DNA of 32,479 nt from Gemmatimonadota bacterium (GTDB taxonomy: Bacteria; Gemmatimonadota; Gemmatimonadetes; Gemmatimonadales; Gemmatimonadaceae), in contig JAGWYS010000014.1 of assembly GCA_018969225.1 (NCBI GenBank), positions 1-32,479 of the forward strand, read 5' to 3'. The notes beneath the pieces were generated by a model. That model did not search any database, was not told where the DNA came from, and saw only the letters and a list, made by a program, of their open reading frames with translations. Made by a program: the position numbers and the translations under genes. Shown in pieces: positions 3,020 through 17,170 of the stretch (positions are counted from its first letter, which is position 1; every line of letters starts with the position of its first letter).

Positions 3020-3036
3020 CGGTGGCCGCGCCACCG
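3020..3036 (+). other. Stem-loop in the leader of the first glycosyltransferase
   Basis: CGGTGGC CGC GCCACCG is a perfect 7-bp stem with a three-base loop, 34 bases before ATG 3071. The 194-bp divergent spacer 2877-3070 otherwise shows an AT-richer patch near 2918-2931 that may hold the plus-strand promoter. A role in attenuation is conceivable but not shown. Confidence 0.35.
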
Positions 3037-3070
3037 AGGGGCGAGGGGCCGACACCATGGAGAGCGCGCG

Positions 3071-4165
3071 ATGGCTGGAGGGCGGGGGATACCGCGGGTG
3101 CTGATGGTCCTGCCGCGGTTGGAGACCGGCGGGATGGAGTGCACGGTGCTGGCGCAGGCCCACCAGCTCCGCGCCGCCGGCGTGGAGGTGGCCCTCGCGG
3201 CCCTCTCCCCCGGCGGCGACCTGGAGGAGCAGGCGGCGGCGCGGGGGGTGCCGGTGGTCAGCACCCCCGGGGTGACCGACCTGAAGAGCGGGGCGGCCTT
3301 CGTGGGCGCCGCCGCCACGCAGGTCGGGGCCACCCTGGTTCATAGCCACACGGGCGCGTGGCTGCCGTCCGCCATCGCGGCGCGGCGGTTGCGGGTGCCG
3401 CACGTGCACACCCGCCACGGCTTCAATCCGGGGGCCACCGCCGCCGTCAGCGAGTTCCTGGCGGCACGCGCCACCAGCCACGTGGTGTGCGTGTCCGAGG
3501 AGCTGGCGCGGCATGGCCGGCAGATCCTCCGCATCTCCAGCGCGCGCCTGGAGGTCGTGCCCAATGGCGCGGACCTTGCCACCCTCCCTGAGCCCGCCCC
3601 CGTCGCAGCCGACGCCGACCCGGCGCTGGTGATGGTGTGCCGGCTGGTGACGGTCAAGAACATCCCCCTGGTGCTGGAAGCGCTTCGGCTGGTGCGCCCC
3701 CGGGTGCCGCGGCTCACGCTCACCCTCATGGGCGACGGTCCCGAGCGGGAGGCGCTCACGGCCCGGGCCGAGGCGCTGGGGGTGGCCGATGCGGTGCGGT
3801 TCCTGGGGATGGTGGAGCGGCCCTGGTCGCACCTCCCCCCCGGGGGGGTGTTCGTGCAGTCCAGCGACTCGGAGGGGCTGTCGGTCAGCCTCATCGAGGC
3901 GATGGCGATGGGGTGCCGGGTGGTGGCCACCGCCGTGGGGCAGACGGCCACCTTCGTGGACGGCGCCCCCGGCGTGCGGCTGGTCCCGCCGCGGGAGGTG
4001 CCCCCCATGGCCGCCGCCCTCGAGGCGATGGCGTGCATGGCCCCCGGCGAGGCGCGCCATCTGGAAGCGGCCAACCGGGCCCATGCGCGGGCGGTGGGGG
4101 GGGTAGGGCGGGTGGTGGAGCGGCTGCGGTCGCGCTACGCCGCCCTCGCAGCCGCGCAGGGATGA
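3071..4165 (+). CDS. Glycosyltransferase family 4 (GT-B fold)
   Basis: Cytoplasmic or membrane-associated retaining glycosyltransferase moving a sugar from a nucleotide donor to a glycan or lipid-linked acceptor. The 364-residue product begins RVLMVLPRLETGGMECTVL, the N-terminal GT-B nucleotide-fold strand and GG loop. VVPNGAD follows mid-protein, and the C-terminal donor domain carries VCRLVTVKNIPLVLEAL, LMGDGPERE and DSEGLSVSLIEAMAMG, the E-x7-E motif that contacts the sugar-nucleotide. ATG 3071 is chosen because it follows GGAGAG at a good distance; upstream codons in frame look non-coding. It is the first plus-strand gene of the glycan locus. Sugar and acceptor are unknown. Confidence 0.93.
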   Translation: MAGGRGIPRVLMVLPRLETGGMECTVLAQAHQLRAAGVEVALAALSPGGDLEEQAAARGVPVVSTPGVTDLKSGAAFVGAAATQVGATLVHSHTGAWLPSAIAARRLRVPHVHTRHGFNPGATAAVSEFLAARATSHVVCVSEELARHGRQILRISSARLEVVPNGADLATLPEPAPVAADADPALVMVCRLVTVKNIPLVLEALRLVRPRVPRLTLTLMGDGPEREALTARAEALGVADAVRFLGMVERPWSHLPPGGVFVQSSDSEGLSVSLIEAMAMGCRVVATAVGQTATFVDGAPGVRLVPPREVPPMAAALEAMACMAPGEARHLEAANRAHARAVGGVGRVVERLRSRYAALAAAQG

Positions 4166-4179
4166 CCTGACCCCCCCGC

Positions 4180-4221
4180 CGCGCGTCCTTGGTCGCGCGG
4201 CGCGCGTCCTTGGCCGCGCGG
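4180..4221 (+). repeat. Tandem pair of 21-bp repeats, each a hairpin
   Basis: Two abutting 21-bp units (4180-4200 and 4201-4221) differ at one base (T or C at unit position 14). In the first, CCGCGCG (4179-4185) and CGCGCGG (4194-4200) can pair around TCCTTGGT; the second forms an equivalent stem. They lie in the 146-bp gap between the glycosyltransferase and MBOAT genes. Possible roles are a transcription attenuator or a protein-binding site. Confidence 0.6.
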
Positions 4222-4311
4222 CAGGGCGGCGGCCTCCCCGTCCTCCCGCCCCGGCGATCCGGCCGGGCGTTCACCTCCGCGGGCTACCCGCAACCCTGGG
4301 GCAGTGCACAG

Positions 4312-5709
4312 ATGCTGTTCAACAGCCTGGAGTTCCTCCTCGGCTTCCTGCCGGTGGCGTACCTCGTGTTCTGGTCCCTGCGCGGGGCCCAGTCGCGGTA
4401 CGTCTGGCTGACCATCAGCGGGTACGTGTTCTACGGGTGGTGGGACCCGCGGTTCACGCTGCTCATGGCGTTTTCCACGCTGGTGAGCTTCACGGCCGGG
4501 CTGGGGATGGCCCGCGCCCCGCTGGGGTCGTCGCGGCGGCGCGCCTGGCTGGTGGTGCCGGTGGTGGTGGACCTCTCGCTGCTGGGGTTCTTCAAGTACG
4601 CCAACTTCGCGCTCGACACCGTCCGGGAGGTCACCACCTGGGCCGGCGCACCGGTGGCGCTCCCGCACCTGGACATCATCCTCCCCATCGGGATCTCGTT
4701 CTACACGTTCCACACCATCAGCTACATCGTGGACGCGTACCGGGGCGACATCACCCCCACGCGCAACCTGTGGGAGTACGCCGCCTACGTGTCGCTCTTC
4801 TCACAGCTGGTGGCGGGCCCCATCGTGCGCTTCCGCCAGGTGGAGGCCGACCTGGAGCAGCTGGGCGCCGACAGCCGCACGCGGTGGCTGCGCCGGGGGA
4901 TCGCGTTCTTCGTGATCGGCCTGGTGGAGAAGGTCCTCGTGGCCGACACGCTGGCCGCCCTGGTGGACCCGGCCTTCGCCGGGTGGCGGACGCTCTCCAC
5001 GGCGGGGGCGTGGCTGGCGACGCTGGGGTACACCTTCCAGCTGCTCTTCGACTTCTCGGGCTACAGCACGATGGCGGTGGGGCTGGGGTTCCTGTTCGGC
5101 ATCCGCATCCCGCAGAACTTCAACGCCCCCTACCAGTCGCTCGACCCGTCGGAGTTCTGGCAGCGCTGGCACATCTCGCTCTCCTCCTGCCTGCGCGACT
5201 ACGTCTACATCCCCTTCGGCGGCAACCGCCTGGGGGTGGCGCTCACCTACCGCAACCTGATGCTCACCATGCTCATCGGCGGGCTGTGGCACGGGGCCGC
5301 GTGGACGTTCGTGGTGTGGGGGGGGTACCACGGGCTCCTGCTGTGCGCCCACCGGCTTGGGCGGCGGCAGTGGGACGTGCTCCCCGCGCCGGTGCGGCAG
5401 GGGGGGATGTTCCTGGCGGCCATGGTGGGGTGGGTGTTCTTCCGCGCCACCAGCTTCGAGGAGGCGCTCCACATCCTGCGGACGATGGTGGTGCCCACGG
5501 CGGGGCAGCTCCCCAGCGACCTGAACCTCGGGCTGGTGGGGGTGACGATGGCGGTGGCGGCCTGGTGGAGCCTCCGGGGCCCCACGCCGCTGGCGATGGT
5601 GGAGCGCGGGGCGCCGTCGCGCCGGGTGGCGCTGGCGCTGGCGTTCGGCGCCAGCCTCGCGCTCATCATCACGGCGCGCCCGTCGCCGTTCCTCTACTTC
5701 CAGTTCTGA
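4312..5709 (+). CDS. MBOAT-family O-acyltransferase, AlgI-like
   Basis: Polytopic membrane protein of 465 residues that passes an acyl group, usually acetyl, across the membrane to a polysaccharide, as AlgI, PatA and DltB do. Signature blocks: LGFFKYANF near residue 100, PIGISFYTFHTISYIVDAYRG near 125-145, AGPIVRFRQ, then DPSEFWQRWHISLSSCLRDYVYIPFGGNR and GGLWHGAAWTFVVWGGYHG with the invariant catalytic histidine H327. The frame is open upstream, but MLFNSLEFLLGFLPVAYL is the standard AlgI-type start, so ATG 4312 is chosen. It ends two bases before the SGNH-fold gene at 5712, which indicates an operon. Substrate is inferred to be the glycan made by this locus. Confidence 0.95.
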   Translation: MLFNSLEFLLGFLPVAYLVFWSLRGAQSRYVWLTISGYVFYGWWDPRFTLLMAFSTLVSFTAGLGMARAPLGSSRRRAWLVVPVVVDLSLLGFFKYANFALDTVREVTTWAGAPVALPHLDIILPIGISFYTFHTISYIVDAYRGDITPTRNLWEYAAYVSLFSQLVAGPIVRFRQVEADLEQLGADSRTRWLRRGIAFFVIGLVEKVLVADTLAALVDPAFAGWRTLSTAGAWLATLGYTFQLLFDFSGYSTMAVGLGFLFGIRIPQNFNAPYQSLDPSEFWQRWHISLSSCLRDYVYIPFGGNRLGVALTYRNLMLTMLIGGLWHGAAWTFVVWGGYHGLLLCAHRLGRRQWDVLPAPVRQGGMFLAAMVGWVFFRATSFEEALHILRTMVVPTAGQLPSDLNLGLVGVTMAVAAWWSLRGPTPLAMVERGAPSRRVALALAFGASLALIITARPSPFLYFQF

Positions 5710-5711
5710 CC

Positions 5712-6842
5712 ATGGCCAACGGGACGCGTGCGACCGGGGTGTTGGGGGGACTGCTTGCGCTGGTGGCCGGCGCCGTGGCGTTCGAGGGGACGGTGCGGCT
5801 GGACGACTGGGCCCGCTTCGGCACCCCGCTCGCCTCGGGGGCGTCGTCGCTGGGGGACCTCGTGGTGCGCGACTCGCTGGGCATCCACGCGCGCCCCGGG
5901 GGGGCGTTCCGCCAGTTCGTCATCAACCGTCGCGGGTTCCGGGGGCCGGAGACGGCCGCGCTCCCCGAGCCGGCGCTGGTCATCGCGGCCAGCGGCGCCT
6001 CGGAAACCTTCGGGCTGTACGAACGCGCCGGGGGGGAATGGCCGCGCCAGCTGGAGGACACGTTGCGCGCCCGCTGCGCGGTGCCGGTGCAGGTGCTCAA
6101 TGCCGGGTTTGCCGGCATGGCGCTCCCCACGGTGATCCAGGATGTGGAGCGTCGGCTGGCGCCGCTGCGCCCCGATGTGGGGGTGTACTATCCCACTCCG
6201 GCCCAGTACTTGGAGGCCGAGCGCCCGGTGGCCACCCCCCCGGTGACGCACCCCACGCCGCCGCCGCCGCCCTGGCGGCTGCGCGCCGTGCCACGCACGC
6301 GGGACGCGCTCAAGCGGGCCGTGCCGGAGGCGGCGCTGGACCTGGTGCGGCGTCTGGACACGCGGCGGCAGCGCCAGGCGCTGGCGGACGCCCGGACGGG
6401 GGCGCACGCGGACACGGTGCCGCGTGACCGGCTGGCGGCGTACGAGGAGGACCTGCGCCGCCTGGTGGGGGTGTACCGCCGGGCCGGGATCACGCCGGTG
6501 CTGGTGGTGCACCAGCACCGGTTTGCCGACACCGTGTCGCAGGAGGCGCGGCGGACGCTGCGGGCGTGGGAGCGCTTCTACCCCCGCTACAGCGGCCGGG
6601 TGCTGCTGGCCTTCGACGACTCGGCGGCGGTGCGCACGCGCTGGGTGGCGCGCGACTCGCAGCTGCTGGTGGTCGATCCGCGGGCGGCGTTGCGCGCCCG
6701 CGGGACGGCCGCGTTTGCCGACTTCTCGCACTTCACCGACGACGGGGCCGCCCTGTTCGGGGGAGCGGTGGCCGCCGCGGTGGCTGCCCACCCCGACGCG
6801 GGTGCCGGATGCCGCGCCCCCGGTCCTGCGGGCCGTCCGTGA
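5712..6842 (+). CDS. SGNH-hydrolase-fold protein, likely extracytoplasmic acyl-transfer partner of the MBOAT protein
   Basis: 376-residue protein with an N-terminal membrane anchor or uncleaved signal (VLGGLLALVAGAVAF, residues 10-24). The SGNH features are a block I serine in AASGASETFG (S97) and a late D-x2-H pair in ADFSHFTDDGAALF (D337, H340). AlgJ/AlgX and PatB-type partners pair with MBOAT proteins in the same way, finishing acetyl transfer or removing acetyl groups outside the cytoplasmic membrane. It starts two bases after the MBOAT stop codon. The middle (residues 200-290) is poorly conserved and rich in Arg and Pro. Overall resemblance to known families is low outside the motifs, so acetyltransferase versus esterase activity is open. 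Confidence 0.78.
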   Translation: MANGTRATGVLGGLLALVAGAVAFEGTVRLDDWARFGTPLASGASSLGDLVVRDSLGIHARPGGAFRQFVINRRGFRGPETAALPEPALVIAASGASETFGLYERAGGEWPRQLEDTLRARCAVPVQVLNAGFAGMALPTVIQDVERRLAPLRPDVGVYYPTPAQYLEAERPVATPPVTHPTPPPPPWRLRAVPRTRDALKRAVPEAALDLVRRLDTRRQRQALADARTGAHADTVPRDRLAAYEEDLRRLVGVYRRAGITPVLVVHQHRFADTVSQEARRTLRAWERFYPRYSGRVLLAFDDSAAVRTRWVARDSQLLVVDPRAALRARGTAAFADFSHFTDDGAALFGGAVAAAVAAHPDAGAGCRAPGPAGRP

Positions 6843-7082
6843 GCGCCCGCGCGCGGCGGGGCCCGGTGGCCCGATTGGTGCACCCGCCCCCCGGTGGCCG
6901 GCGCCCCCGCCGGCCGGCCGCCCCGCGGCTGTTGCGCCGCCCCGGTCTCCGCCGTCCATGTACGTGACCCGTTTCCCCGCCCAGCCGGCCCGGGGGGTAT
7001 CCCTGCGTCCGGCATCCCCCATGGCGTTTCGCGCCGCGTCCCGCCTTCAGGCACGTCCGGCTGGCGGCGCGGGGGTGCGCCC

Positions 7083-8456
7083 GTGACGGTCCGGCGCCTG
7101 CGCCCGGCGACCGGGGAGTCCCCGGCCATCGCAGCGCCCCCCGGCGGGGAGTCATCGCTGCTGATGCACGCCGCGTGGCTGATGTCGGTGATGCTCATCC
7201 TGCGCCCGCACGAGCTGGTCCCGGCCATCGCCCCGGTGCGGCCGGTCATCCTGACGACGCTGTTCTCCATCGCGGTGCTGGCGTTCAAGGCGCCCTGGCC
7301 GCAGGTGACCGGCAACCCGGTGGCGCGGCTTTATGCCATGTACCTGGGCTGGGCCATCCTCACCGCGCCCTTCGCCCTGTATCGCGGCGCGACGGTGCTC
7401 ATCGTCCAGAAGATGATGGTGTCGCTGGTGTTCATGGCGCTCATCGCGGCGCTCCCGAGGCGGCTGGGGACGATCCGGACGCTGGCCAACCGGTTCCTCT
7501 TCGCCTATCTCGTGTTCGCGGCGCAGGTGCTCCGCGCCGGCAACGTGGGGGGCACGGGGCGCATCATGGGGCTCACCATGTATGACTCCAACGAGCTCGC
7601 CGTGCTCGCCGTCACGGCGTTCGGCCTGGCCATCGGCGCCATCCGGACGCCCGGGGTGTGGAGCCGCCTCGTCGGCGCGGCCAGCGCGGCGCTGAGCCTC
7701 ATCATCATCGTGCGCTCGGGGTCGCGCGGCGGCGGGATCGCGGCCGTCGTCGCCCTCGCCCTCACGCTGCTCCTCTTCCGCGGGCGGTGGCGCGTGGCAG
7801 GGATCTTTGCGGGGGTGGTGTTCACGCTGCTGGCGATGAGCAACCCCATCTTCCGCGACCGCATCTCGACGGTGGACGAGGTGTCCAGCGACTACAACAT
7901 GACCACCTACAACGGCCGCTGGGAAATCTGGAAGCGGGGCATGTCGTACATCGCCAAGGATCCGGTGATGGGGGTGGGCGTGAACAACTTCACCGAGGCC
8001 GAGGGGCGCAAGCGCCAGGAGAACGGGGTGAAGGGGATGTGGGCCAACGCGCACAACGTCTTCGTGCAGGTGGGGGCGGAGCTGGGGCTGGTGGGGCTGG
8101 GCATCTTCCTGGCGCTCATTGGCGCGGGGTGGCGCGGGGCGCTGGTGGCGTGGAAACACCGCGCGCACCCGGCGGCGATGCCGGAGCTGGCCGTCGCCAT
8201 CGGTGGCCTGGTGGTGGGGGCGGTGTTCCTCAGCCTCGCGTACACGGAGTACGTGTTCTTCCCGCTCGCCCTCGGCGCGGCCGCCGGGCTGGAGTGGCGG
8301 ACGGCTCTTCGGTCCCCCGTGGCCGTGCCGGCGTCGTCCGGCGCCGGGCCCGCCGCCGGACGACGCGTGGCGGGCGCGCGACATCCGCGCAGTCCGCGGT
8401 GGCGCGGCGGCGCGGCGGCGGGGATCCTCCCCGCGCCAACCCAGCTGCCGTCGTAG
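7083..8456 (+). CDS. O-antigen ligase / Wzy-like polymerase family membrane protein
   Basis: Polytopic inner-membrane protein (about 457 residues) of the WaaL/Wzy/TuaE group, which polymerises glycan repeats or ligates them to an acceptor on the periplasmic face. Seen: multiple hydrophobic segments, IIIVRSGSRGGGIAA (the SRGG motif of the Wzy_C domain), a large loop with NGRWEIWKRG, GVGVNNF and WANAHNVFVQVGAELGLVGL with the conserved HN. The start is uncertain: GTG 7083 gives the longest sensible form, and ATG 7164 lies 12 bases after GGGGAG and immediately before the first membrane segment. The 240-bp gap 6843-7082 shows no gene and no clear promoter. The last 45 or so residues are low-complexity, and a 13-bp inverted repeat lies in their coding DNA. 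Confidence 0.88.
   Translation: MTVRRLRPATGESPAIAAPPGGESSLLMHAAWLMSVMLILRPHELVPAIAPVRPVILTTLFSIAVLAFKAPWPQVTGNPVARLYAMYLGWAILTAPFALYRGATVLIVQKMMVSLVFMALIAALPRRLGTIRTLANRFLFAYLVFAAQVLRAGNVGGTGRIMGLTMYDSNELAVLAVTAFGLAIGAIRTPGVWSRLVGAASAALSLIIIVRSGSRGGGIAAVVALALTLLLFRGRWRVAGIFAGVVFTLLAMSNPIFRDRISTVDEVSSDYNMTTYNGRWEIWKRGMSYIAKDPVMGVGVNNFTEAEGRKRQENGVKGMWANAHNVFVQVGAELGLVGLGIFLALIGAGWRGALVAWKHRAHPAAMPELAVAIGGLVVGAVFLSLAYTEYVFFPLALGAAAGLEWRTALRSPVAVPASSGAGPAAGRRVAGARHPRSPRWRGGAAAGILPAPTQLPS
8331..8366. repeat. Perfect 13-bp inverted repeat in the 3' end of the ligase gene
   Basis: GCGTCGTCCGGCG at 8331-8343 and its exact complement CGCCGGACGACGC at 8354-8366 flank a 10-base loop. It sits within the low-complexity C-terminal coding tail, about 90 bases before the stop. 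It could be an early terminator-like structure or a target for DNA-binding proteins; function unknown. Confidence 0.6.
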
Positions 8457-8503
8457 CGTAGCGGCGCGCGAAGGAGCGGCGCGCGCGATGCGCGTCGCAG
8501 CGC

Positions 8504-8563
8504 CTGGCGGTGCGGCGTCTGGCGGTGCGGCGTCTGGCGGTGCGGCGCCTAGCGGCGCGGCGG
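8504..8563. repeat. 15-bp tandem repeat, three and a partial unit
   Basis: CTGGCGGTGCGGCGT occurs at 8504-8518 and 8519-8533, CTGGCGGTGCGGCGC at 8534-8548, and a degenerate unit begins at 8549. The last unit contains the stop codon of the minus-strand glycosyltransferase. The array fills much of the 92-bp gap between two convergent genes. Copy-number change in the spacer units would alter only the spacer, but change in the last unit could alter the glycosyltransferase C-terminus. Confidence 0.75.
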
Positions 8564-9703
8564 CGCGTCCATCACCGCCCGCAGCGCCTGCTCGGTGCTG
8601 CGCACCATGGCCGCGATGCTGAACTGCTCCACGATGCGGGCCCGGGCGATCGCCCCCTGCCGCGCCCGCGTCTCGGCGTCGCCGGCCAGCGCGACCAGCC
8701 ACGCGTCCGCCAGCGCCGCGGCGTCGCCGATGGGCACCACGGCGCCCGTGTCGCCGATGACGAACGCGCTGTCGCCGCAGTCGGTGGCCACGCACGGCAC
8801 CGCCGAGGCCATCGCCTCCCCCAGCACGTTGGGGAACCCCTCGCCGTAGGCGGACGTCAGCGTCACCAGCGACGCGCCGCGAAACGCGGACTCGACCGCC
8901 GTCTCCTCGGGGAGCAGCCGCACCGCGCCCTCGATCCCCAGCGCCCGCGCCTGCGCGTGGAACGCCTCCACCGCCTCCGACGGGCCGCGCCCCATGGCCG
9001 CCAGCCGCACGTCGGGGCGGTGCGCCAGCAGCCGCGCCGCGGCGGTCAGGAACGTGGCGTGGTCCTTCATGGGATCCAGCCGCGCCGGGAGCAGGATGAG
9101 CGGCTCGTCGGCGCCATACCCGTGCCGCGCCCGCCACCGCGCCCCGTCCGCCGCGTCGGGGCGGAAGCGGTCGGTGTTGATGCCGTTGGGGATCACCAGG
9201 CACCGGTCGGCGGGATAGCCGCGCGCCACGTGGAAGCTCCGCCCCGCGTGCGAATTGGCGATGGAGCGGTCGGCCCACCGCGCCAGCTGGCACCCCAGCT
9301 GGAACACCCGGTAGCGGAAGGTGCCCAGCGAGCCGGAGGGCTGCGTGGACACGCGGATCCCCCACACCACCGGGCACCGCAGGAGCCCGCCCAGCAGCAG
9401 CGCCACCTCGTTGGCCCCGGACATGTAGCCGTGCACCACCGTGGGGCCGAACGCGCGCGCCTCCGCCAGCAGCGCGCGACCGAAGCGCACCGTGTCCCAC
9501 CGCCCGCGCTTCGCCGGACGCAGCAGCGTCACCCCGGCGGGCAGCTTGGCCTCAAGGACGCCCCCCGCGTACATTGGGGCGATCGCGACGGCGTGCCCCT
9601 CGGCCACCAGCCCGCCGGCCAGGTTGAGCAGCTGGCGCTCCGCCCCGCCCACCTCGAGCGCTCGGATGATGAACAACACGCGAATCTGCGGTGCAGAAGC
9701 CAT
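8549..9703 (-). CDS. Glycosyltransferase family 4 (GT-B fold)
   Basis: 384-residue retaining glycosyltransferase. N-terminal GT-B part: IRVLFIIRALEVGGAERQLLNLAGGL with the GGAE loop. The hinge region has CLVIPNGINTDRFRP. The donor-binding half has LILLPARLDPMKDHATFLTAA, LAAMGRGPS and SAYGEGFPNVLGEAMASAVPCVAT, the E-x7-E type motif, followed by GDTGAVVPIGD. It is convergent with the ligase gene and divergent from the GT-A-type gene whose start lies about 10-67 bases away, so both may be driven from one short control region. ATG 9703 is the first family-like start. The 15-bp repeat touches its stop codon. Donor and acceptor are unknown. Confidence 0.93.
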   Translation of the reverse strand: MASAPQIRVLFIIRALEVGGAERQLLNLAGGLVAEGHAVAIAPMYAGGVLEAKLPAGVTLLRPAKRGRWDTVRFGRALLAEARAFGPTVVHGYMSGANEVALLLGGLLRCPVVWGIRVSTQPSGSLGTFRYRVFQLGCQLARWADRSIANSHAGRSFHVARGYPADRCLVIPNGINTDRFRPDAADGARWRARHGYGADEPLILLPARLDPMKDHATFLTAAARLLAHRPDVRLAAMGRGPSEAVEAFHAQARALGIEGAVRLLPEETAVESAFRGASLVTLTSAYGEGFPNVLGEAMASAVPCVATDCGDSAFVIGDTGAVVPIGDAAALADAWLVALAGDAETRARQGAIARARIVEQFSIAAMVRSTEQALRAVMDAPPRR

Positions 9704-9718
9704 GGGGACGCGGTGTCA

Positions 9719-9754
9719 GTGGTGACGCAGGTGGTGACGCAGGTGGTGACGCAG
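9719..9754 (+). repeat. Three exact 12-bp tandem repeats at the 5' end of a glycosyltransferase gene
   Basis: GTGGTGACGCAG is repeated three times without change (9719-9754) and the next bases begin a fourth unit. Read in the frame of the downstream gene, each unit encodes Val-Val-Thr-Gln and contains two GTG codons. Depending on the start used, the array is either leader DNA or a repeated N-terminus. A whole-unit copy change would keep the frame. Confidence 0.8.
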
Positions 9755-9769
9755 GTGCGGCGGCGCCTC

Positions 9770-10696
9770 ATGCGGGAGCTGCAGGCGGCCGCCTGGCGCC
9801 GTACCGCCCGCATGATCGACGCCACGCCCCCGACGGGGGCGGCGCGCCACGCCGTCACGGTCCTCACCATGGTCGGCACCCGCGAGGTGGACGCCTACCT
9901 GGTGGCCCTCAAGTCCTTCCACCGGTACCTGCCGGCGCAGGTGGAGGTGATGGACGACGGGTCGCTCACCGAGGACGACCGGCGGCGCCTCGCGCATCAT
10001 GTGCCGGGGATCCGCTTCAGCACGTACGCCGACGTCCCGGCCGACCGGTGCCAGTCGGGGGGCTGCTGGGAGCGCCTCTACCGCATTGCCGCGCTCAACC
10101 GCGACCAGTACGTCATCCAGCTGGACTCGGACACGGTCACCACCACCGACCCGACGGAGGTGCGCGCCGCCGTGGAGGCGGGGCGCGGGTTCGTGATCGC
10201 CGGCGGGCTGGAGGGATCGGCGCTGGTGGACTACGCGTCGGCGGCGGCGGCCGCGCGGCTGCAGCCGCTGGGGCACATGCAGCGCGACGCGGAGATCGCC
10301 CTCCCTCACCTGGCCTTCGGGAGCCGGTACGTGCGCGGCTGCGCCGCCTTCTGCGGCTTCCCCCCCGGCAGCGTGACGCGCGAGGGCATCGAGGCCATCC
10401 ACGCCGTCATGGCCGGGCACCTCGGGGCGCGCTGGAGCGAGTGGGGGAGCGAGCAGGTGGCGTCCAACCTGCTCGTGGCCAACGCGGCGGGGACGCAGGT
10501 GCTCCCCGCCCCGAAGTACTGCTCCCACTACCCCGAGTCGTACCACCTCGTGCGCCGCCCTGAGATCGCCTTCGTACACTTCATCGGGAGCCACCGGTAC
10601 GACCGCGGCAACTACCGCGCGCTCGCCCGGGACGCCCTCGACGCGCTCGCCCGCCGCGGCCAGGGCGGGTCCGGCGCGGGCGCCGGATCCGCCTGA
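9770..10696 (+). CDS. GT-A-fold glycosyltransferase-like protein
   Basis: 308 residues if begun at ATG 9770; GTG codons at 9713 or in the 12-bp repeats would add up to 19 residues. Visible motifs: an N-terminal strand HAVTVLTMVGTREVDAYLVALKSF, an acidic MDDGS turn, and a DXD-type metal and nucleotide-sugar site in YVIQLDSDTVTT. Near the C-terminus FVHFIGSHRYD resembles the terminal His-x-x-Gly block of GT8-like enzymes. Cysteines near the middle (CQSGGCW, CAAFCGF) are unusual. The gene is divergent from the GT4 gene and convergent with the lipoprotein gene, separated by 22 bases with a hairpin. The fold call is fairly secure; the family assignment and substrate are not. Confidence 0.72.
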   Translation: MRELQAAAWRRTARMIDATPPTGAARHAVTVLTMVGTREVDAYLVALKSFHRYLPAQVEVMDDGSLTEDDRRRLAHHVPGIRFSTYADVPADRCQSGGCWERLYRIAALNRDQYVIQLDSDTVTTTDPTEVRAAVEAGRGFVIAGGLEGSALVDYASAAAAARLQPLGHMQRDAEIALPHLAFGSRYVRGCAAFCGFPPGSVTREGIEAIHAVMAGHLGARWSEWGSEQVASNLLVANAAGTQVLPAPKYCSHYPESYHLVRRPEIAFVHFIGSHRYDRGNYRALARDALDALARRGQGGSGAGAGSA

Positions 10697-10713
10697 GGCC
10701 GCGGCGGGCCTCA
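10694..10713. terminator. Short hairpin between convergent genes
   Basis: TGAGGCC and GGCCTCA form a 7-bp stem with a six-base loop. It begins at the stop codon of the plus-strand glycosyltransferase and ends five bases before the stop of the minus-strand lipoprotein. Position suggests a bidirectional terminator, but there is no U-tract on either side. Confidence 0.4.
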
Positions 10714-10718
10714 CGCGA

Positions 10719-12464
10719 CTACCGCCGGTACCAGAGGTACTGGTAGGAGTCGTAGTACTGCTGGTTGAACTGCTTGCTCCCCGCCAGCCACGCCCCCGCC
10801 ATGGCCCCGTCGGCGATCGAGTCGGCCACGGCCACGTACCGGCGGTCCCCCGTCTGCCGCCCCACGAAGGCGAAGCCGTTCACGATCAGCATGTTGAGGT
10901 CCGGCACCGGCAGCAGGTCGTCGGGACCCGTGCACTGGACGTCGATGTACGTGAACGCACGGCTGGCCGGGCGCCACGAGCTCTGGTGCAGGTAGTCCAC
11001 CGCCCGCCTGATGGTGGTCACCACCGCCGGGTTGGCCGTGTGCCGCTCGTAGTACTTGATGAGGGCGTCGTTCTGGAGCCCCACCATGAAGTTCCCCTGG
11101 TGGCTGCACCAGTTGGGCCAGGCGTAGCGCCCGTCGGGCTGCTGGAGCGACATGATGTTGTTGACGTAGGCCGTGGTCTTGGCGGCCCAGCCGTCGCTGG
11201 TGTCCCCCAGTTCCCACGCCAGCAGGCTGGCCACCAGCATGCGCGCCTGGATGCGCCCCTCGATGTACTCCCCGGTCGGGTTGGCCAGCGCGGCCGGGCT
11301 GAACGCCGCGGTGGCGCGGCCGGCCGAGTTGACCACGGCCGTCCGGGACGCCGGGTCGCCGGTGAGCCAGTAGTGCATCGCCACCCCCTCCAGCGCCATC
11401 CAGTGCGGCGACGGGTTGAAGCCGCTCCCCGCCAGGTACTGGTCGCGGTAGTTGATCGCCAGCGCCACGGCGCGCTTCCAGTACTCGAGGTCCCCCGACC
11501 GGATCCAGTAGGCGAAGTGGTTGGACGCCCGGTCGTAGTAGTTCGAGTACTCCCACTGGGCGCCGTTGGCCGCCCAGTGCTGGTCGGCGAAGGTGCGGAA
11601 CTGGCTCTCGTAGAGGGTGTTGGGGTTGTCGGCCACCGAAATGGTGGGCCCCACCAGCCCGGTGGACAGCAGGAAGGCCCGGTCACGGGGATAGGTGACG
11701 GCCGGAGGCGTGGCGGCGGGGATCGGCCACGGCGCCGGGTCGGCCGTCGTGCGCGTGACCCCCACGTTGAGCTGCATCGTGGTCACCGCCGGATTGGCCT
11801 GGAACTGCAGCAGCACGGCCCGCAGGCTGCCGTCGGCGTAGCGCCCCTGCAGCGCCTGCAGCACCCGCGGCACCTCCTTGGTGCCGTCGGAGAGGGCCGT
11901 GGTCGCCAGGTCCTTCTCGAACAGCCACCCCTTGGGGAGGGGGATGCCGTTGGAGGAGAGCGGCGCGGCCGCCGCCGGGTCCAGCACCGTCAGCGCCAGC
12001 GCCAGCTGCTTGGTGGGCGCGGGGGGTGGCGGGGGCGGCGGCGTGGCCGTGTCGGTGGCGGGGCGGTCGGCCACCGACATCGGCACCGTCGCGCTGCAGC
12101 TCGAGAGCGTGGCCATCAGCACCACGGTCCCGGCGCGGAGCCCGCGGGCGTAGCTCCCCGCGATCGACACGATGGACGTGTTGCTGGAGCTCCAGACGGG
12201 CGTCCCGGAGATCGTCTGGCCGTTGACCTTCCGGCGCAGGAGGATCGTCGAGAGCTTCGCGCTGTCACCCACCAGCAGGGAGCTGTCCGTCGCCGTGGCC
12301 AGGAGGCAGGACGTCGTGGAAGAGGTGGTGGCCATGAGGGGGTCGGGGAGATCGGCTCCCGGGGACACCGGGGCGTCCCGGCAGGCGCCGAGGACAGCCA
12401 GGAGCGGGAGCAGTAGCGCGCCAACGCCCGCAAGGCGTCGGCCAGTGACAGTAGACTGGTCCAT
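10719..12464 (-). CDS. Secreted lipoprotein: bacterial Ig-like domain plus alpha/alpha-toroid-like domain, behind a c-di-GMP riboswitch
   Basis: 581-residue predicted lipoprotein. The signal peptide ends in the lipobox VLGAC (C28). Residues of about 50-135 look like a BIG2-type Ig domain (DSAKLSTILLRR, PVWSSSNTSIVSI, GLRAGTVVLMATL). A Thr/Pro linker with seven prolines in a row follows. The remainder, of about 420 residues, is rich in Trp, Tyr and His with repeated helix pairs (YYDRASNHFAYWIRSGDLEYWKRAVALA, HWMALEGVAMHYWLTGD, RIQARMLVASLLAWELGD, LQQPDGRYAWPNWCSHQ), the look of an (alpha/alpha) toroid as in polysaccharide lyases and glycosidases. No known catalytic signature is recognised, so the enzyme idea is inference. 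The start ATG 12464 lies just after the riboswitch. Confidence 0.8.
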   Translation of the reverse strand: MDQSTVTGRRLAGVGALLLPLLAVLGACRDAPVSPGADLPDPLMATTSSTTSCLLATATDSSLLVGDSAKLSTILLRRKVNGQTISGTPVWSSSNTSIVSIAGSYARGLRAGTVVLMATLSSCSATVPMSVADRPATDTATPPPPPPPAPTKQLALALTVLDPAAAAPLSSNGIPLPKGWLFEKDLATTALSDGTKEVPRVLQALQGRYADGSLRAVLLQFQANPAVTTMQLNVGVTRTTADPAPWPIPAATPPAVTYPRDRAFLLSTGLVGPTISVADNPNTLYESQFRTFADQHWAANGAQWEYSNYYDRASNHFAYWIRSGDLEYWKRAVALAINYRDQYLAGSGFNPSPHWMALEGVAMHYWLTGDPASRTAVVNSAGRATAAFSPAALANPTGEYIEGRIQARMLVASLLAWELGDTSDGWAAKTTAYVNNIMSLQQPDGRYAWPNWCSHQGNFMVGLQNDALIKYYERHTANPAVVTTIRRAVDYLHQSSWRPASRAFTYIDVQCTGPDDLLPVPDLNMLIVNGFAFVGRQTGDRRYVAVADSIADGAMAGAWLAGSKQFNQQYYDSYQYLWYRR

Positions 12465-12483
12465 GGTCCGCTCAGGTAACAGG

Positions 12484-12586
12484 TTCGGAAGCCCGACCGG
12501 CCTGGTGTGCCCCGGAGGTGGGGCACGCGGTAGCCTCGTGGCTTTGCGTCCCGCGCTTTCGCGCGGTTTGCCGTTTCGCGCGGTTG
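12484..12586 (-). ncRNA. Cyclic di-GMP-I riboswitch (GEMM-I)
   Basis: On the minus strand the core matches the c-di-GMP-I aptamer: GGCAAACC (12572-12565), a short stem with a GAAA tetraloop, then GGGACGCAAAGCC running to about 12538. After this come the tetraloop-receptor side GAGGCTACC, a long stem GTGCCCC/GGGGCAC (loop ACCTCC), and a GGTCGGGCTTCCG 3' closing segment resembling the family's GGGTTACCG end. Only about 20 bases separate the aptamer from ATG 12464, so translation control is more likely than termination. Outer P1 pairing is weak by eye. The rest of the 429-bp divergent spacer 12465-12893 holds one further hairpin (12637-12656) and the asnB promoter. Confidence 0.9.
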
Positions 12587-12636
12587 ACCCGCGGCCCATG
12601 CCCGTGCACCTGGCGCAGGCTGGCCCGGCCACCACC

Positions 12637-12656
12637 GGGGCGACACCCGTCGCCCC
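12637..12656. other. Perfect hairpin upstream of the riboswitch
   Basis: GGGGCGAC ACCC GTCGCCCC is a perfect 8-bp stem with a four-base loop in the divergent spacer. It lies about 50 bases upstream of the aptamer in the minus-strand sense. No U-tract follows. It might insulate the two divergent units; function unknown. Confidence 0.4.
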
Positions 12657-12881
12657 CCTGCCGCCGCCGCGGGGCGTGCCCGCGACGCGCCAAGGGGGAA
12701 GGCCGCTCCACCGACCGGGGTGACGGGAGCCTCCTTCCTCCCCACCCCGGCATCGCGTCCACCGCCACAGTGGACCCTCTCCCCGGCGCCGAATCGTATG
12801 CGCGGGGGGGGCGGGGAGTTCATCCTGCGGTGTCCTCCGTCACCGGACGCCGGCGCGCCGCCCCCCCCCGGCGCGCGCGCC

Positions 12882-12893
12882 TATATTGCGCGC
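12882..12893 (+). promoter_or_regulatory. Leaderless-type -10 element of asnB
   Basis: TATATT (12882-12887), six bases GCGCGC, then ATG 12894. The hexamer is the only AT-rich stretch in a long GC run. The same geometry recurs at 2877-2888, 15982-15993, 19940-19951 and 27348-27359. No -35 box is visible in the upstream G/C run. Confidence 0.65.
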
Positions 12894-14813
12894 ATGTGCG
12901 GAATCGTCGGCACCTTGCGCCTGCGCGAGCGCGTGGACCCGGAGCGGCTCGTGGCGCAGCGCGACACGCTGGTCCACCGGGGCCCCGACTCCGCGGGGCT
13001 CTGGATCGCGCCCGACGGCCGCGTCGGGCTGGCCCATCGGCGGCTGGCCATCATCGACCTCTCCCCCGGCGGTCACCAGCCCATGGTGGACCCCCGCACG
13101 GGCGCGGTGATCACCTTCAACGGCGAGATCTACAACTACCGCGCGCTCCGGGACGCGCTCGCCGCCCTCGGCCACGAGGCCGCCACGCAGTCGGACACCG
13201 AGGTCATCCTCCTGGCCTACCGGGCGTGGGGGGTGGACTGCCTCCCCCGGCTGCAGGGGATGTTCGCCTTCGCGCTGTACGACCCGCAGCAGCACCGCCT
13301 GCTGCTGGCGCGCGACCGCGCCGGCGAGAAGCCGCTGTTCCTCTGGCGCACCGAGGGGCAGCTGAGCTTTGCCAGCGAGGTCAAGGCGCTGCTGGCCGAC
13401 CCGGCCTGCCCGCGGCGCCTCACCCTCGACGGCCTCAACGCGTACCTCGCGTACGGGTACGCCACCGGCGAGCACACCCTCTGGGCCGACATCTCGCAGC
13501 TGCCCCCCGGCGGGTGGATGACGGTGGACACCCGCACGGGCGAGACCGCCAGCGGGGCCTACTGGACGCTGCCGCAGCCGCCCATGTCGGCCCCGTCCGC
13601 CGGCGGCGCGGCGGACGACGGTGACCTCGAGGCGCTCGCCGCACGGCTCGATGGCGTGCTCGAGGGCGCCGTGCGCCGGCAGCTGGTGGCCGACGTGCCG
13701 GTGGGGATCCTGCTCAGCGGCGGGGTGGACTCCAGCCTCGTGACGGCCATGGCCGCCCGCGTCAGCGAGCGGCCGGTGCGCACCTTCACCGTGCGCTTCC
13801 CCGACGCCCCCCACGCCGACGAGGGCCCCTTCGCCCGCCAGGTGGCGCAGCACTTCGGTACGCACCACACCGAGCTGGAGGCGGAGCCGGCCACCCCCGA
13901 CCTGCTGCGGACACTGGCCGCGCAGTACGACACCCCCATTGCCGACTCCTCGATGCTCCCCACCTACCTGGTCAGCCGCGCCATCCGGCGCGAGGCCACG
14001 GTGGCGCTGGGGGGTGACGGCGGCGACGAGCTGTTCGGTGGCTACCTGCGCTACCCCGCGCTGCTGCAGCAGGCGCAGTGGCGCCGGCAGCTGCCGGCGT
14101 GGGTGCGGCGTCCCCTCGCCCGGGGCGCGCTGGCGTTCTGGCCGCCCACGGCGCGCGGACACGGCTGGCTGGAAGCCCTGGGCGGTTCGGCGGAGGAGGG
14201 GCTGGCCGCCGCCGGCCGTTTGCTGCGCCCGCGGGAGCGGCAGGCCCTCATCCCCCGCCTGCGGTCCGCAGCGGCGGAGCGGGTCCTCGCCCCCGAGCGG
14301 CTGCGCGGCACGCTGACCCGCGACCGCGAGGGGCTGGTGGCCCGCGCCACCGCCCTGGACTTCGCCACCTACATGGTGGACGACGTGCTGGTGAAGGTGG
14401 ACCGCGCCAGCATGCTGGCCTCGCTCGAGGTGCGCGCCCCGCTGCTGGACGCCGAGATGATCACCTTCGCCTTCGGCGCCGTCCCCGACGCGGCCAAGGT
14501 CTCGCCGAGTGCCCGCAAGCGACTGCTGCGCCAGCTGGGGCGTCGCCTGCTCCCTCCGTCGCTGGACCTCGCGCGCAAGCAGGGGTTTGCCATCCCGGTG
14601 TCCGACTGGATGCGCGGCCCGTGGCGCCCGTTGCTGCGGCCGCTGCTGGAGGACGCCGCGCACCCGCTGCTGGGCGCGCTGCTGGACCGGGACGGGTGCC
14701 GCCGGTTGGCGGCCCGGCTGGACGCCGGCGCGCCCGTGGGGGAGCCGCTCTTTGCGCTCCTGATGCTGGGGCTGTGGGCCGACGCCTACCGGGTCAGCGA
14801 CGTGGCGGGGTGA
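12894..14813 (+). CDS. asnB: Glutamine-hydrolysing asparagine synthase family amidotransferase
   Basis: 639-residue cytoplasmic enzyme with the class II glutaminase domain first and the ATP-dependent synthetase domain second. Start MCGIVG leaves Cys2 as the N-terminal nucleophile after Met removal, which fixes ATG 12894. Glutaminase markers: HRGPDSAGLW, HRRLAIIDLSPGGHQP, FNGEIYNY. Synthetase markers: the PP-loop SGGVDSS (about 275-281), ALGGDGGDELFGGY, DRASMLASLEVRAPLLD and the late ARKQGFAIPVSDWMRG. It could make asparagine. Embedded among glycosyltransferases, however, it may amidate a sugar acid or lipid-linked precursor, as reported for AsnB-like proteins in other polysaccharide loci; that is inference. 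Its 3' end overlaps the convergent GT2 gene by 20 bases. It is divergent from the riboswitch-controlled lipoprotein. Confidence 0.95.
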   Translation: MCGIVGTLRLRERVDPERLVAQRDTLVHRGPDSAGLWIAPDGRVGLAHRRLAIIDLSPGGHQPMVDPRTGAVITFNGEIYNYRALRDALAALGHEAATQSDTEVILLAYRAWGVDCLPRLQGMFAFALYDPQQHRLLLARDRAGEKPLFLWRTEGQLSFASEVKALLADPACPRRLTLDGLNAYLAYGYATGEHTLWADISQLPPGGWMTVDTRTGETASGAYWTLPQPPMSAPSAGGAADDGDLEALAARLDGVLEGAVRRQLVADVPVGILLSGGVDSSLVTAMAARVSERPVRTFTVRFPDAPHADEGPFARQVAQHFGTHHTELEAEPATPDLLRTLAAQYDTPIADSSMLPTYLVSRAIRREATVALGGDGGDELFGGYLRYPALLQQAQWRRQLPAWVRRPLARGALAFWPPTARGHGWLEALGGSAEEGLAAAGRLLRPRERQALIPRLRSAAAERVLAPERLRGTLTRDREGLVARATALDFATYMVDDVLVKVDRASMLASLEVRAPLLDAEMITFAFGAVPDAAKVSPSARKRLLRQLGRRLLPPSLDLARKQGFAIPVSDWMRGPWRPLLRPLLEDAAHPLLGALLDRDGCRRLAARLDAGAPVGEPLFALLMLGLWADAYRVSDVAG

Positions 14814-15981
14814 CCGACGGGCCCTCCTGGGGCGCGGCCGTGTGCGCCGCCGCGTCCCACACGGCCCAGCGCCCCGTGGACCCGAACACCACCGCGCGCC
14901 CCAGCGCCCACTGCAGCGCCACCCCGAAGGCCAGCGCGTCCCGCACCCGCCGCCGGCCGCCAGGCCACAACAGCAGCGCCCCCACCACGCTGGCCGCCGC
15001 CAGCAGCCCCGCCGTGCCCAACGCCGCCAGCAGCGAGGCCAGCTGCGCGGTGGCAGCGGCCAGCAGCAGCAGCATCCACATGGGCGAGGTCAGCCGCGCC
15101 AGCTTGTGCAGGTAGAACGCCCCGCGCACCGGGTTGGCGCGCGTGCGCAGCGCCGGCAGCAGCTGCAGCAGCTGCAGCACCCCGGTCTGCGTGCGGGTCT
15201 TGCGCGTCACCTCCGCCCCCACGTCGAAGGAGCGGCTGTCCCACGCCCTGGCGGCCGGCACCACCCCCACGCGCCACCCCTCCAGCACCAGCCGCATCGG
15301 CACGTACACGTCGTCCAGGATGGTCCCCGGCGGCAGCGGGGCCCACTGTGCCGTGCGCAGGGCGTACACCGCGCCGGTCACCCCGATGCTGGCATGCACC
15401 AGCATCTCCTGCCGGCGCAGGAACCGCTCCAGCGCCCAGTACGCGCGCAGCGGCGACGCGTCAGACGGGAGCACCAGCGTGCCGGATATGGCGCCGAAGT
15501 CGGGGTCCTCGATGGCGGCCACCAGCTCGGGAATCGTCCGGGCGTCAAACCGCTGCGCCGTGTCGGCAAACACCAGCACCTCGGCGTCGGTGGCGGCGCG
15601 CACCCCGGCATTGACGGCGCACGCCTTCCCCCCGGGGGCATCGGCGGCCACGGTGGTGACCGCATCGCCGAAGGGCGCCAGCGCCGCCGCCGCGGGGGCG
15701 GGGTCGCCATCCACCGCCACCACCACCGCCAACCGGTCGCGCGGGTGATCCGATTCCAGGAGGTTCCGCACGCGCGCCACCACCGCCTCGGGGCTCGCGC
15801 GGGTGGCCAGGATGACCGCCACCCGGCGCTGCGCCGCGGCGCGGGGGTCGGGGCGAATGGGGCGCGGGCGCCACTGGGCCCGCACCCACATCACGGCCGG
15901 ATACCCCAGCCAGATGCCAAGCAGCGCGCCGGCGGCCAGGGCGCCGGCCGCCAGCGCCCCCCAGGTCGATGCGACGTCCAT
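14794..15981 (-). CDS. Membrane glycosyltransferase family 2
   Basis: 395-residue processive-type GT2 with an N-terminal membrane segment (LAAGALAAGALLGIWLGYPAV) and two or three hydrophobic segments near the C-terminus. The catalytic core runs from RRVAVILATRAS through GGKACAVNAGV, VLVFADTAQRF (DXD-like, with only one aspartate in the usual place), VTGAVYALR, GTILDDVYVPMRLVLEGWRVG (the acidic ED/DD position) and TRKTRTQTGVLQLL, which replaces the Q/R-x-x-RW loop. It probably extends a polymer or transfers a sugar to a membrane acceptor. Start ATG 15981 has a leaderless-type promoter. The end overlaps asnB by 20 bases tail to tail. Confidence 0.9.
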   Translation of the reverse strand: MDVASTWGALAAGALAAGALLGIWLGYPAVMWVRAQWRPRPIRPDPRAAAQRRVAVILATRASPEAVVARVRNLLESDHPRDRLAVVVAVDGDPAPAAAALAPFGDAVTTVAADAPGGKACAVNAGVRAATDAEVLVFADTAQRFDARTIPELVAAIEDPDFGAISGTLVLPSDASPLRAYWALERFLRRQEMLVHASIGVTGAVYALRTAQWAPLPPGTILDDVYVPMRLVLEGWRVGVVPAARAWDSRSFDVGAEVTRKTRTQTGVLQLLQLLPALRTRANPVRGAFYLHKLARLTSPMWMLLLLAAATAQLASLLAALGTAGLLAAASVVGALLLWPGGRRRVRDALAFGVALQWALGRAVVFGSTGRWAVWDAAAHTAAPQEGPSVTPPRR

Positions 15982-15993
15982 GCCGCCAATCTA
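15982..15993 (-). promoter_or_regulatory. Leaderless-type -10 element
   Basis: Minus-strand TAGATT (15993-15988), six bases GGCGGC, then ATG 15981 of the GT2 gene. Same geometry as four other genes in the window; TAGATT looks like the core consensus. Confidence 0.65.
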
Positions 15994-16162
15994 GCACGCC
16001 TCGCACGTCCCACCGGCGCCCGCTTTGCTTCCGCAGGGCGTACCCCTTAATTGCGATAGCCATGCACCACGCCCCCCCCGACCAGCGCGTCCCTCCCGGG
16101 TCCGCGTGCGGCCGTGCCCGCCGCCCCCGGCCGCCTCGTGCACCCGTCGCAACGGAGGCCCC

Positions 16163-17170
16163 GTGTCCATCGCGGTCGTGATCCCGGTCCGCGACCGGGC
16201 GGCGCTGCTGGAGCGCTGCCTGGGCGCGCTGCGGGAGGCGGCGGCACAGGCGGAGCGCCACGGGGCGGGGCCGGTGCGCGTGGTGGTGGCCGATCACGGG
16301 TCGCGCGACGGGACCGTGGCGGTGGCCGAGCGCTTCGCGCCGCTGGTGTCGGTGGCGCACAGCCGCGCGCGCACCGTGGCCGGCGTGCGCAACGACGGCG
16401 CCGCCGCGGCGGAGGCCGCCCTGGACCCGGCGCTGCTGGTGTTCCTCGACGCCGACTGCATCGTGCCGCCGGGTTTTCTCGTGGCCTGTGGCGAGGTGCT
16501 CGCCGAAACCGGGGGCGCCGCCGCGGGGTGCGAGGTGGTCTCCCCCGCCGACGGCCACTGGACCGAGCGCACCTGGGACGCCATCCACCGCCCCGGGGGC
16601 GACGGCCGCCGGTACTTCATCAACTCGGCCTGCTTCGCCGTGCGCAGCGCGTGGTTCCGGCGCATCGGGGGGTGGGACGCGGAGCGCACCACCAGCGAGG
16701 ACGTGGACATCTGCCGGCGGCTCACCATCGCCGGCGGACGCATGGACCAGTCGGAACGGCTGGCCGTGCTGCACCTGGGGAACCCGCAGTCGGTGGCCGG
16801 CGTCTATCGCCGCGTCCGCTGGCACAGCGAGGGGGTGGCTGAGCGCGGCCGGGCGGTGCAGTGGTCGCGCTACATGGTGGCCACGCTGGGGCACGCGCTG
16901 CTGGCGGTGGGCGGCACCGGCGCGGCCGCGTGGCTGCTGTGGCACGGGGACGCGGCGCGCGCCGCGCTGGCGCTGGTGGCCGGCTGGTTCCTGATGCCGC
17001 TGCTGTTCGTGGTCGCGCGCGCCGTGCAGTACCGCCGCTGGATGCCGTGGATGGCGGGCACGGCGCTCATGGCCATCACCTTCCCGGCGCGCCTGCACGG
17101 CATGGCCCGGGGGTGGTGGCGCAGCGTGCGCCGCCGCGCGGCGGCCACGACGCCTCCCGTGGCCGCGTGA
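16163..17170 (+). CDS. Glycosyltransferase family 2
   Basis: 335 residues. The start is GTG 16163, chosen because GGAGG lies five bases upstream and because the GT2 fold begins at once with VSIAVVIPVRDRAALLERCL. Further motifs: VVVADHGSRDGTVAVAE, VRNDGA, LLVFLDADCIVPPGF (DXD metal site), FINSACFAVRSAWFRRIGGWD and TTSEDVDICRRLTIAGG (acidic general-base position). A C-terminal pair of hydrophobic stretches (GHALLAVGGTGAAAWLLW and VAGWFLMPLLFVVARA) anchors it in the membrane. It overlaps the VanZ-like gene by four bases (GTGA), so the two are translationally coupled. The 181-bp divergent spacer upstream contains an AT-richer TTAATTG near 16050 as a possible promoter. Confidence 0.92.
   Translation: MSIAVVIPVRDRAALLERCLGALREAAAQAERHGAGPVRVVVADHGSRDGTVAVAERFAPLVSVAHSRARTVAGVRNDGAAAAEAALDPALLVFLDADCIVPPGFLVACGEVLAETGGAAAGCEVVSPADGHWTERTWDAIHRPGGDGRRYFINSACFAVRSAWFRRIGGWDAERTTSEDVDICRRLTIAGGRMDQSERLAVLHLGNPQSVAGVYRRVRWHSEGVAERGRAVQWSRYMVATLGHALLAVGGTGAAAWLLWHGDAARAALALVAGWFLMPLLFVVARAVQYRRWMPWMAGTALMAITFPARLHGMARGWWRSVRRRAAATTPPVAA

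What the first reader, a model, noticed from the sequence alone, without database searches (positions are those of the whole stretch)
12464..12586. c-di-GMP-I riboswitch directly in front of a secreted Ig-domain lipoprotein of unknown activity
The minus-strand core GGCAAACC, GAAA tetraloop and GGGACGCAAAGCC are seen in sequence and are diagnostic of the GEMM-I aptamer. It ends about 20 bases before the ATG of a 581-residue lipoprotein that I cannot place in a known enzyme family. In a glycan locus this points to a surface or matrix protein switched by c-di-GMP, probably by hiding the start region. The riboswitch class is known; the controlled gene looks undescribed.
Basis: partly seen in the sequence, partly recalled or inferred. 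Interest (0 to 1): 0.85.

Follow-up and report, generated by a model that had tools for sequence, protein, structure and literature searches.

The report
c-di-GMP riboswitch before glycan-enzyme-like lipoprotein
A well-known type of RNA switch that senses the bacterial signal c-di-GMP sits just in front of a gene for a membrane-anchored lipoprotein that resembles sugar-polymer-cutting enzymes, and the same arrangement recurs in related bacteria.

Summary
The riboswitch is real and ordinary: RF01051 at 12484-12582 (-), 60.1 bits (cut-off 35), the only one found in the host draft genome, ending 19 nt before the ATG of a 581-residue lipoprotein. The host belongs to Gemmatimonadota. It has a lipobox, a weak Ig-like segment, a segment matching the PcRGLX N-terminal RIFT barrel (profile-profile probability 94.6%; control 0.1%), and a C-terminal (alpha/alpha) toroid whose modest model best matches GH76. 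No Pfam or NCBIfam family covers it. Strong relatives: at least 25 places in 14 of 395 genomes. Of 22 with visible upstream DNA, 7 have the riboswitch 16-29 nt before the called start, 1 is the second ORF behind one, 2 follow a riboswitch-led copy, 12 have none. More broadly, of 97 Gemmatimonadota GEMM-I sites read, 66 lead into a gene with a strict lipobox (66 of 77 with a usable start; control 22 of 116), and 40 of the 77 carry Big_2. Best reading: c-di-GMP controls translation of an anchored, probably glycan-active lipoprotein, part of a phylum-wide GEMM-I/lipoprotein regulon that my library searches did not find described. Direction, ligand binding and activity are untested.

The parts
12484..12582 (-). 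c-di-GMP-I (GEMM-I) riboswitch aptamer
   Evidence: cmscan RF01051, 60.1 bits, complete model
12473..12612 (-). possible enclosing P1 helix: 12601-12612 (one base bulged) pairing with 12473-12483, reaching the edge of the weak Shine-Dalgarno-like UGAG
   Evidence: In the MFE of the leader with 30 or 45 nt upstream, free and constrained, and with 60 nt upstream only when constrained; not tested by covariation
12462..12483 (-). spacer with weak SD-like GAG, and start codon ATG (12464-12462)
   Evidence: sequence; 19 nt spacing
10719..12464 (-). 581-aa lipoprotein with weak Ig-like segment, PcRGLX-like RIFT-barrel segment and C-terminal (alpha/alpha) toroid
   Evidence: translation; hhalign with control; AlphaFold2/Foldseek; relatives
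2960..17170 (.). surrounding glycan locus: GT4-type glycosyltransferases (2960-4165, 8549-9703), MBOAT (4189-5709), Wzy_C ligase (6894-8456), asparagine synthase (ORF to 14813), GT2 (14794-15981, 16025-17170); the ORFs 5709-6842 and ending at 10696 had no Pfam family
   Evidence: Pfam

Best explanation
A canonical c-di-GMP class I riboswitch sits in the 5' leader of a gene for a membrane-anchored lipoprotein. The mature protein is an Ig-like stalk carrying a PcRGLX-like RIFT-barrel segment and an (alpha/alpha) toroid, probably an enzyme that cuts a polysaccharide. c-di-GMP binding is inferred to change access of ribosomes to the start region 19 nt downstream, since there is little room for a terminator and none was found. 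My lean is that ligand stabilises the helix enclosing the aptamer and lowers translation at high c-di-GMP, about 0.55 to 0.45. The protein would remodel the cell's own exopolysaccharide or an environmental glycan as cells change between free and attached life. Shown here: the aptamer, the spacing, the lipoprotein signal, the recurrence, the remote family link. Inferred: ligand binding, translational mode, direction, enzymatic activity, substrate, exposure at the surface.
For: RF01051 60.1 bits. 9 GGDEF and 6 EAL matches in the host genome. Of 22 relatives with visible upstream, 7 have a GEMM-I 16-29 nt before the called start, 1 is the second ORF behind one, 2 follow directly behind a riboswitch-led copy, 12 have none; the seven direct cases lie in 6 genera. 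Start-to-aptamer spacing over 77 leaders: median 22 nt, range 9-44; no terminator-like site in 12300-12900. Anti-SD motif upstream of the aptamer in 31 of 64 leaders, 17.7 expected from shuffles (the window leader is not among the 64, and leaders are related, so the strength is overstated). Toroid: Foldseek top hits GH76 4d4b E 5.1e-4 and 6zbm E 5.8e-4; AGE epimerases from E 0.016, PL BACCELL_00875 from 0.064, GH105 from 0.14 and GH88 from 0.22. RIFT-barrel segment against a PcRGLX-type alignment: hhalign probability 94.6%, E 6.7e-8, control alignment of four glycosyltransferases 0.1%. The family profile scores 12 of 14 PcRGLX-type proteins at 5.6-35.0 bits, against at most 3.6 bits for proteins off those contigs, and no reversed sequence is reported; best matches are collinear at N-lobe and toroid.
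Against: Model confidence is modest (mean pLDDT 52.6, about 69 over residues 161-400, pTM 0.60, two sequences); only 2 Foldseek hits reach E 0.001 and TM-scores by query are about 0.4-0.5. hhalign aligned only the N-lobe, not the toroid. PcRGLX_1st is not reported for any of 22 members at E 1, and neither is the central PcRGLX_2nd. No catalytic residue was proven; the GH76 Asp-Asp pair (recalled) is not evident. Twelve of 22 relatives lack the riboswitch, including the 76% identical own-genome paralogue. Upstream-SD pairing does not exceed mismatched pairs in 34 leaders (p 0.17). RBS opening cost is high in both states (free/constrained 7.8/7.6, 12.4/13.2, 10.1/12.1, 7.2/8.0 kcal/mol for four leader lengths).
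Confidence: 0.68

Rival explanations
1. The toroid domain does not cut glycans and is a glycan-binding or structural matrix protein, with the riboswitch making it in the attached state, like V. cholerae Vc1 and GbpA (positive control by c-di-GMP).
For: Vc1 positively regulates the GlcNAc-binding attachment protein GbpA (PMC4744006, abstract and passages). One riboswitch-led relative, L069 second copy, carries a ricin-type lectin domain. Only one acidic residue, D160 of the YDR motif in A1 numbering, is invariant.
Against: Conservation of YDR, R253 (invariant) and H213, Q290, N373, K413 (90% or more) suggests an active site rather than a mere scaffold.
Confidence: 0.22
2. The riboswitch has lost its function or controls something other than this gene; its place before the lipoprotein is incidental.
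For: The 76% identical paralogue has no riboswitch; riboswitch presence is scattered on the family tree, at least 5 changes forced and no more clustered than shuffles; some c-di-GMP riboswitches of C. difficile are non-functional (PMC6366702, passages).
Against: Complete aptamer with matching contact bases, 19 nt spacing, and the same pairing with six further relatives from several genera.
Confidence: 0.08

Closest known systems
Vc1 GEMM-I riboswitch upstream of gbpA, Vibrio cholerae (PMC4744006, abstract and passages)
   Same: Class I aptamer with the same kind of contact residues, before a secreted carbohydrate-binding attachment protein; no terminator reported between aptamer and ORF
   Different: There transcription starts 225 nt (annotated start) or 244 (experimental start) before translation and the motif lies in the first 111 nt; here the aptamer ends 19 nt from the ATG. 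The regulated protein differs (GbpA against a lipoprotein with RIFT-barrel segment and toroid)
PcRGLX-type proteins (PF19501/PF21345/PF21346; solved PcRGLX, e.g. 5xq3)
   Same: RIFT-barrel-like segment followed by (alpha/alpha) toroid; weak profile matches well above controls
   Different: No central PcRGLX_2nd beta-sandwich found; lipobox and Ig-like segment added; not reported by Pfam at E 1
GH76 alpha-1,6-mannanase (alpha/alpha)6 fold
   Same: Best structural matches of the toroid model
   Different: 11-15% identity in the seven top GH76 rows; GH76 catalytic Asp pair (recalled) not evident

Membership tests
c-di-GMP-I riboswitch (RF01051) | Covariance-model score above gathering cut-off | tested here: met
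   60.1 bits against 35, full model
c-di-GMP-I riboswitch (RF01051) | Ligand-contact residues equivalent to G20, A47, C92 | tested here: met
   Matching bases by alignment to the consensus; residue names from PMC4744006 passages; mapping mine
c-di-GMP-I riboswitch (RF01051) | Binds c-di-GMP and changes expression | not testable with these tools
   Needs in-line probing and a reporter
PcRGLX-type protein | N-terminal RIFT barrel (PF19501) | tested here: inconclusive
   Family profile against 13 PcRGLX-type proteins: probability 94.6%, 52 columns (control 0.1%); PF19501 not reported for any of 22 members at E 1
PcRGLX-type protein | Central beta-sandwich (PF21345) | tested here: not met
   Not reported in 22 members at E 1; 13 of 13 PcRGLX-type proteins match it
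PcRGLX-type protein | C-terminal (alpha/alpha) toroid | tested here: inconclusive
   Toroid-type proteins are the best structural matches of a modest model; weak profile matches in the toroid; hhalign did not align it
GH76 | Catalytic Asp-Asp pair (recalled) | tested here: not met
   No invariant acidic pair in A1
Bacterial lipoprotein | N-terminal hydrophobic stretch ending in lipobox cysteine | tested here: met
   LLAVLGAC at residues 21-28

The most novel reading that the evidence does not exclude
In Gemmatimonadota the GEMM-I riboswitch, lipoprotein signal and Ig- or lectin-like stalk form an exchangeable front end placed before many different glycan- or protein-acting domains (this toroid family, GH26, GH6, PL14, subtilases), so c-di-GMP sets the displayed lipoproteome as a whole by translational gating. 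Two same-genome paralogue pairs share the toroid while only one of each has the riboswitch front end: the window against its dockerin-bearing copy, and two copies in G245, one with riboswitch, lipobox and ricin-type lectin, the other with none of the three found.
Probability: 0.4. Interest if true: 0.65.

Novelty: new member of a known kind. Interest (0 to 1): 0.5.

Why it matters
It would give a phylum for which I found little c-di-GMP literature (five papers holding both words in the library) a concrete c-di-GMP output: a set of lipoproteins, many with Ig-like domains and some glycan-active, behind one riboswitch class. It also attaches an uncurated protein family to a known fold group and so to a testable activity.

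Tried and rejected
Single-sequence AlphaFold2 of the whole protein: pLDDT 36, useless. PDB sequence search with the family profile: only 5bp8, E 0.97. Viral contigs: 20 stretches matched a pattern, none a relative. Plasmids: one record with a relative, Gemmatirosa kalamazoonensis plasmid 1, 26% identity, no GEMM-I in the 13.4 kb fetched. General complementarity of the region 5' of the aptamer to the SD/start: window duplex -17.6 kcal/mol, ranks 3-4 of 34, but the set as a whole is not above mismatched pairs (p 0.17; 3 of 37 leaders dropped for far starts); a shuffle control gives a mild excess (mean z -0.56). Free against aptamer-constrained folds do not fix the direction. I first took the DnaJ protein at 21054-22112 for a PilZ carrier; Pfam shows only DnaJ at E 0.01. 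Census drops: 30 sites came as loci, one of them (L047) being the L073 site and so not counted twice; a few listed sites near contig ends were not fetched; of 97 read, 4 had no ORF, 5 were one response-regulator-like group, 11 had starts under 8 or over 60 nt away; 77 remained. Counted without these drops it is 66 strict lipoboxes of 93 called genes. The control of 116 genes contains family members and riboswitch-led lipoproteins and was allowed any start in its first 60 codons, so it is high. Sites were taken from the top of the score-ordered list, not at random. In some searches only 3, 10 and 4 candidates per genome were scored, so those counts are lower bounds. In one search the ORF that I picked for L163 was too short (359 residues); the longer one scores 9.0 bits.

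Full report
One Rfam family matches the 32.5 kb window: RF01051 at 12484-12582 (-), full model, 60.1 bits, E 1.5e-9 (repeated). The aptamer ends 19 nt before the ATG at 12464 of a 581-residue ORF ending at 10719. It is the only such element found in the host draft genome (86.3% complete), which has 9 GGDEF and 6 EAL matches, so c-di-GMP is very likely made and degraded there. The host is placed in Gemmatimonadota through relatives: G041, of its order, has a contig of the same length as a named Gemmatimonadetes contig holding the same gene, and G080, of its family, has a relative at the place where the Gemmatirosa kalamazoonensis plasmid has one. The RNA is a standard member of its class.

The protein. 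P0001 has lipobox LGAC, a sub-threshold Ig-like segment, and no Pfam or NCBIfam family at the cut-off. A search of 395 genomes of the phylum found relatives. The profile search matched 22 of 395 genomes at E 0.001; 25 places in 14 genomes have E of 2e-16 or better, the rest are weak. Only 4 candidates per genome were scored, so this is a lower bound. Four of the 25 are cut by a contig end (G000 C67, G170 C221, C621 and C379:19960). Twenty-two sequences were aligned (A1; position 1 is residue 152 of P0001): Y159, D160, R161, R171 and R253 are among 11 invariant columns; H213, Q290, N373 and K413 are 90% or more.

Fold and remote family. AlphaFold2 with a two-sequence alignment gave mean pLDDT 52.6, about 69 over residues 161-400, pTM 0.60. 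Foldseek against the PDB put GH76 mannanases first (4d4b, E 5.1e-4; 2 hits under 0.001), then, among weaker hits, AGE epimerases (E 0.016 up), polysaccharide lyase BACCELL_00875 (0.064 up) and GH105/GH88 (0.14 up), all (alpha/alpha) toroids by established knowledge. The N-lobe motif recalled PcRGLX. PF19501 was found in 11 of 200 genomes of the phylum, none of them the host. I fetched 14 places and aligned 13 (A4). Profile-profile comparison gave probability 94.6% over 52 N-lobe columns; four window glycosyltransferases as control gave 0.1%. The family profile scored 12 of 14 PcRGLX-type proteins at 5.6-35.0 bits; among 123 control ORFs, apart from family members and ORFs on the PcRGLX contigs, the best was 3.6 bits, and no reversed PcRGLX-type sequence was reported. 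The best matches are collinear at N-lobe and toroid. All 13 match PcRGLX_2nd, which is not reported in the window family. So it probably works like, and is distantly related to, these proteins, but is not filed as a member.

Recurrence of the riboswitch. Loci of 24 of the 25 places were scanned (G245 C2:1369763 was not fetched). In two (G170 C221, C621) the ORF runs to the contig end. Of the other 22, the riboswitch lies 16-29 nt before the called start in 7 (window, L064, L071 first copy, L069 second copy, L065 long ORF, L066 second ORF, L074). L073 has it before a 132-residue lipoprotein ORF that overlaps the relative's ORF. Two tandem copies (L065, L071) follow directly behind. Twelve have none (L063, L066 first, L069 first, L070, L072, L075, L076, L077, L078, L079, L080, L081). 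L064, L069, L071 and L073 score best as RF03167, a close Rfam variant; L065, L066 and L074 as RF01051. On a tree of 22 members, counting 9 with (tandem copies included) and 11 without, the label needs 6 changes, 5 of them forced by well-supported branches; shuffles need 6.8 on average and about 40% are as low. It is thus scattered, gained or lost often. The own-genome paralogue (76% identical) has a dockerin segment and no GEMM-I. In G245 the riboswitch-led copy has a ricin-type lectin, its neighbour has no Pfam family.

A phylum-wide pattern. RF01051 was found above its cut-off in 202 of 395 genomes (with strict filters and at most 10 candidates a genome). I read 97 sites: 8 attached to this family, 29 others brought in by the search, 60 more fetched. 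93 had an ORF; 77 had a start 8-60 nt downstream and were not the response-regulator-like group. A strict lipobox is in 66 of these 77, or 66 of all 93, against 22 of 116 control genes scored generously. Pfam on the 77, many cut at the locus end: Big_2 in 40, Big-like 21, Big_1 21, GH26 6, subtilase 5, ricin lectin 3, GH6 1, PL14 1; also one GGDEF and one EAL. The sites are the better-scoring ones, not a random sample.

Mechanism. Median aptamer-to-start spacing is 22 nt (9-44) over the 77, leaving little room for a terminator, and no terminator-like site was found around the window's leader; control at translation start is the simplest reading. A possible P1 helix encloses the aptamer and reaches the weak SD. 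Anti-SD motifs upstream of the aptamer are in 31 of 64 leaders, 17.7 expected (leaders with a clear SD only, so not the window's), but matched upstream/SD pairs are no better than mismatched ones (34 leaders, p 0.17). Opening the window's start region costs 7-13 kcal/mol with or without the aptamer constraint. I lean slightly to OFF at high c-di-GMP. Class I switches act in either direction (PMC6366702, passages; PMC4744006, abstract and passages).

Novelty. Library searches for c-di-GMP-I riboswitch with Gemmatimonadetes (none), c-di-GMP with riboswitch and Gemmatimonad (one), Gemmatimonas with GEMM and riboswitch (four), c-di-GMP with riboswitch, lipoprotein and Ig-like (one, on Leptospira) and Gemmatimonadota with c-di-GMP (five) gave listings whose titles and abstract starts do not describe this regulon; I did not read those papers. 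The library lacks most subscription papers. GEMM control of motility, adherence and membrane genes is a known theme (PMC6366702, passages), so I call this a new member of a known kind.

Noticed in passing
G000:C67:1-8000 (L063): Own-genome paralogue of the lipoprotein, 76% identical over residues 147-540, with a dockerin type I segment and no riboswitch, next to a Sortilin/BNR-type protein that also has a dockerin near its end: possible dockerin-based assembly in this bacterium.
   Followed up: partly
L043, L048, L049, L050, L102: GEMM-I sites 11 nt before a conserved 312-residue response-regulator-like protein (the name is my reading of the sequence); in L043, L048, L049 and L050 the SD (GAGGAG) abuts the aptamer and could pair within P1, which looks like a translational OFF design.
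   Followed up: no
window 21054-22112 (+): DnaJ-domain protein with a long Pro/Ala linker and an unassigned C-terminal domain; a PilZ-like look was not confirmed by Pfam.
   Followed up: partly
L051, L096, L105: GEMM-I sites before secreted-looking proteins without a lipobox that share the N-terminal sequence GLFNRPFYIGAYLGEADSRTE; six of the 77 census proteins match GH26 in Pfam, and these may be among them.
   Followed up: no
L073:7477-7872 (-): Small 132-residue lipoprotein ORF between the riboswitch and the toroid gene, overlapping the latter's ORF.
   Followed up: partly
L165:644-2944, L166:4354-5475, L170:3224-4543: Further ORFs on PcRGLX contigs that match the window family's profile (24-31 bits), so such contigs hold clusters of these proteins.
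   Followed up: no
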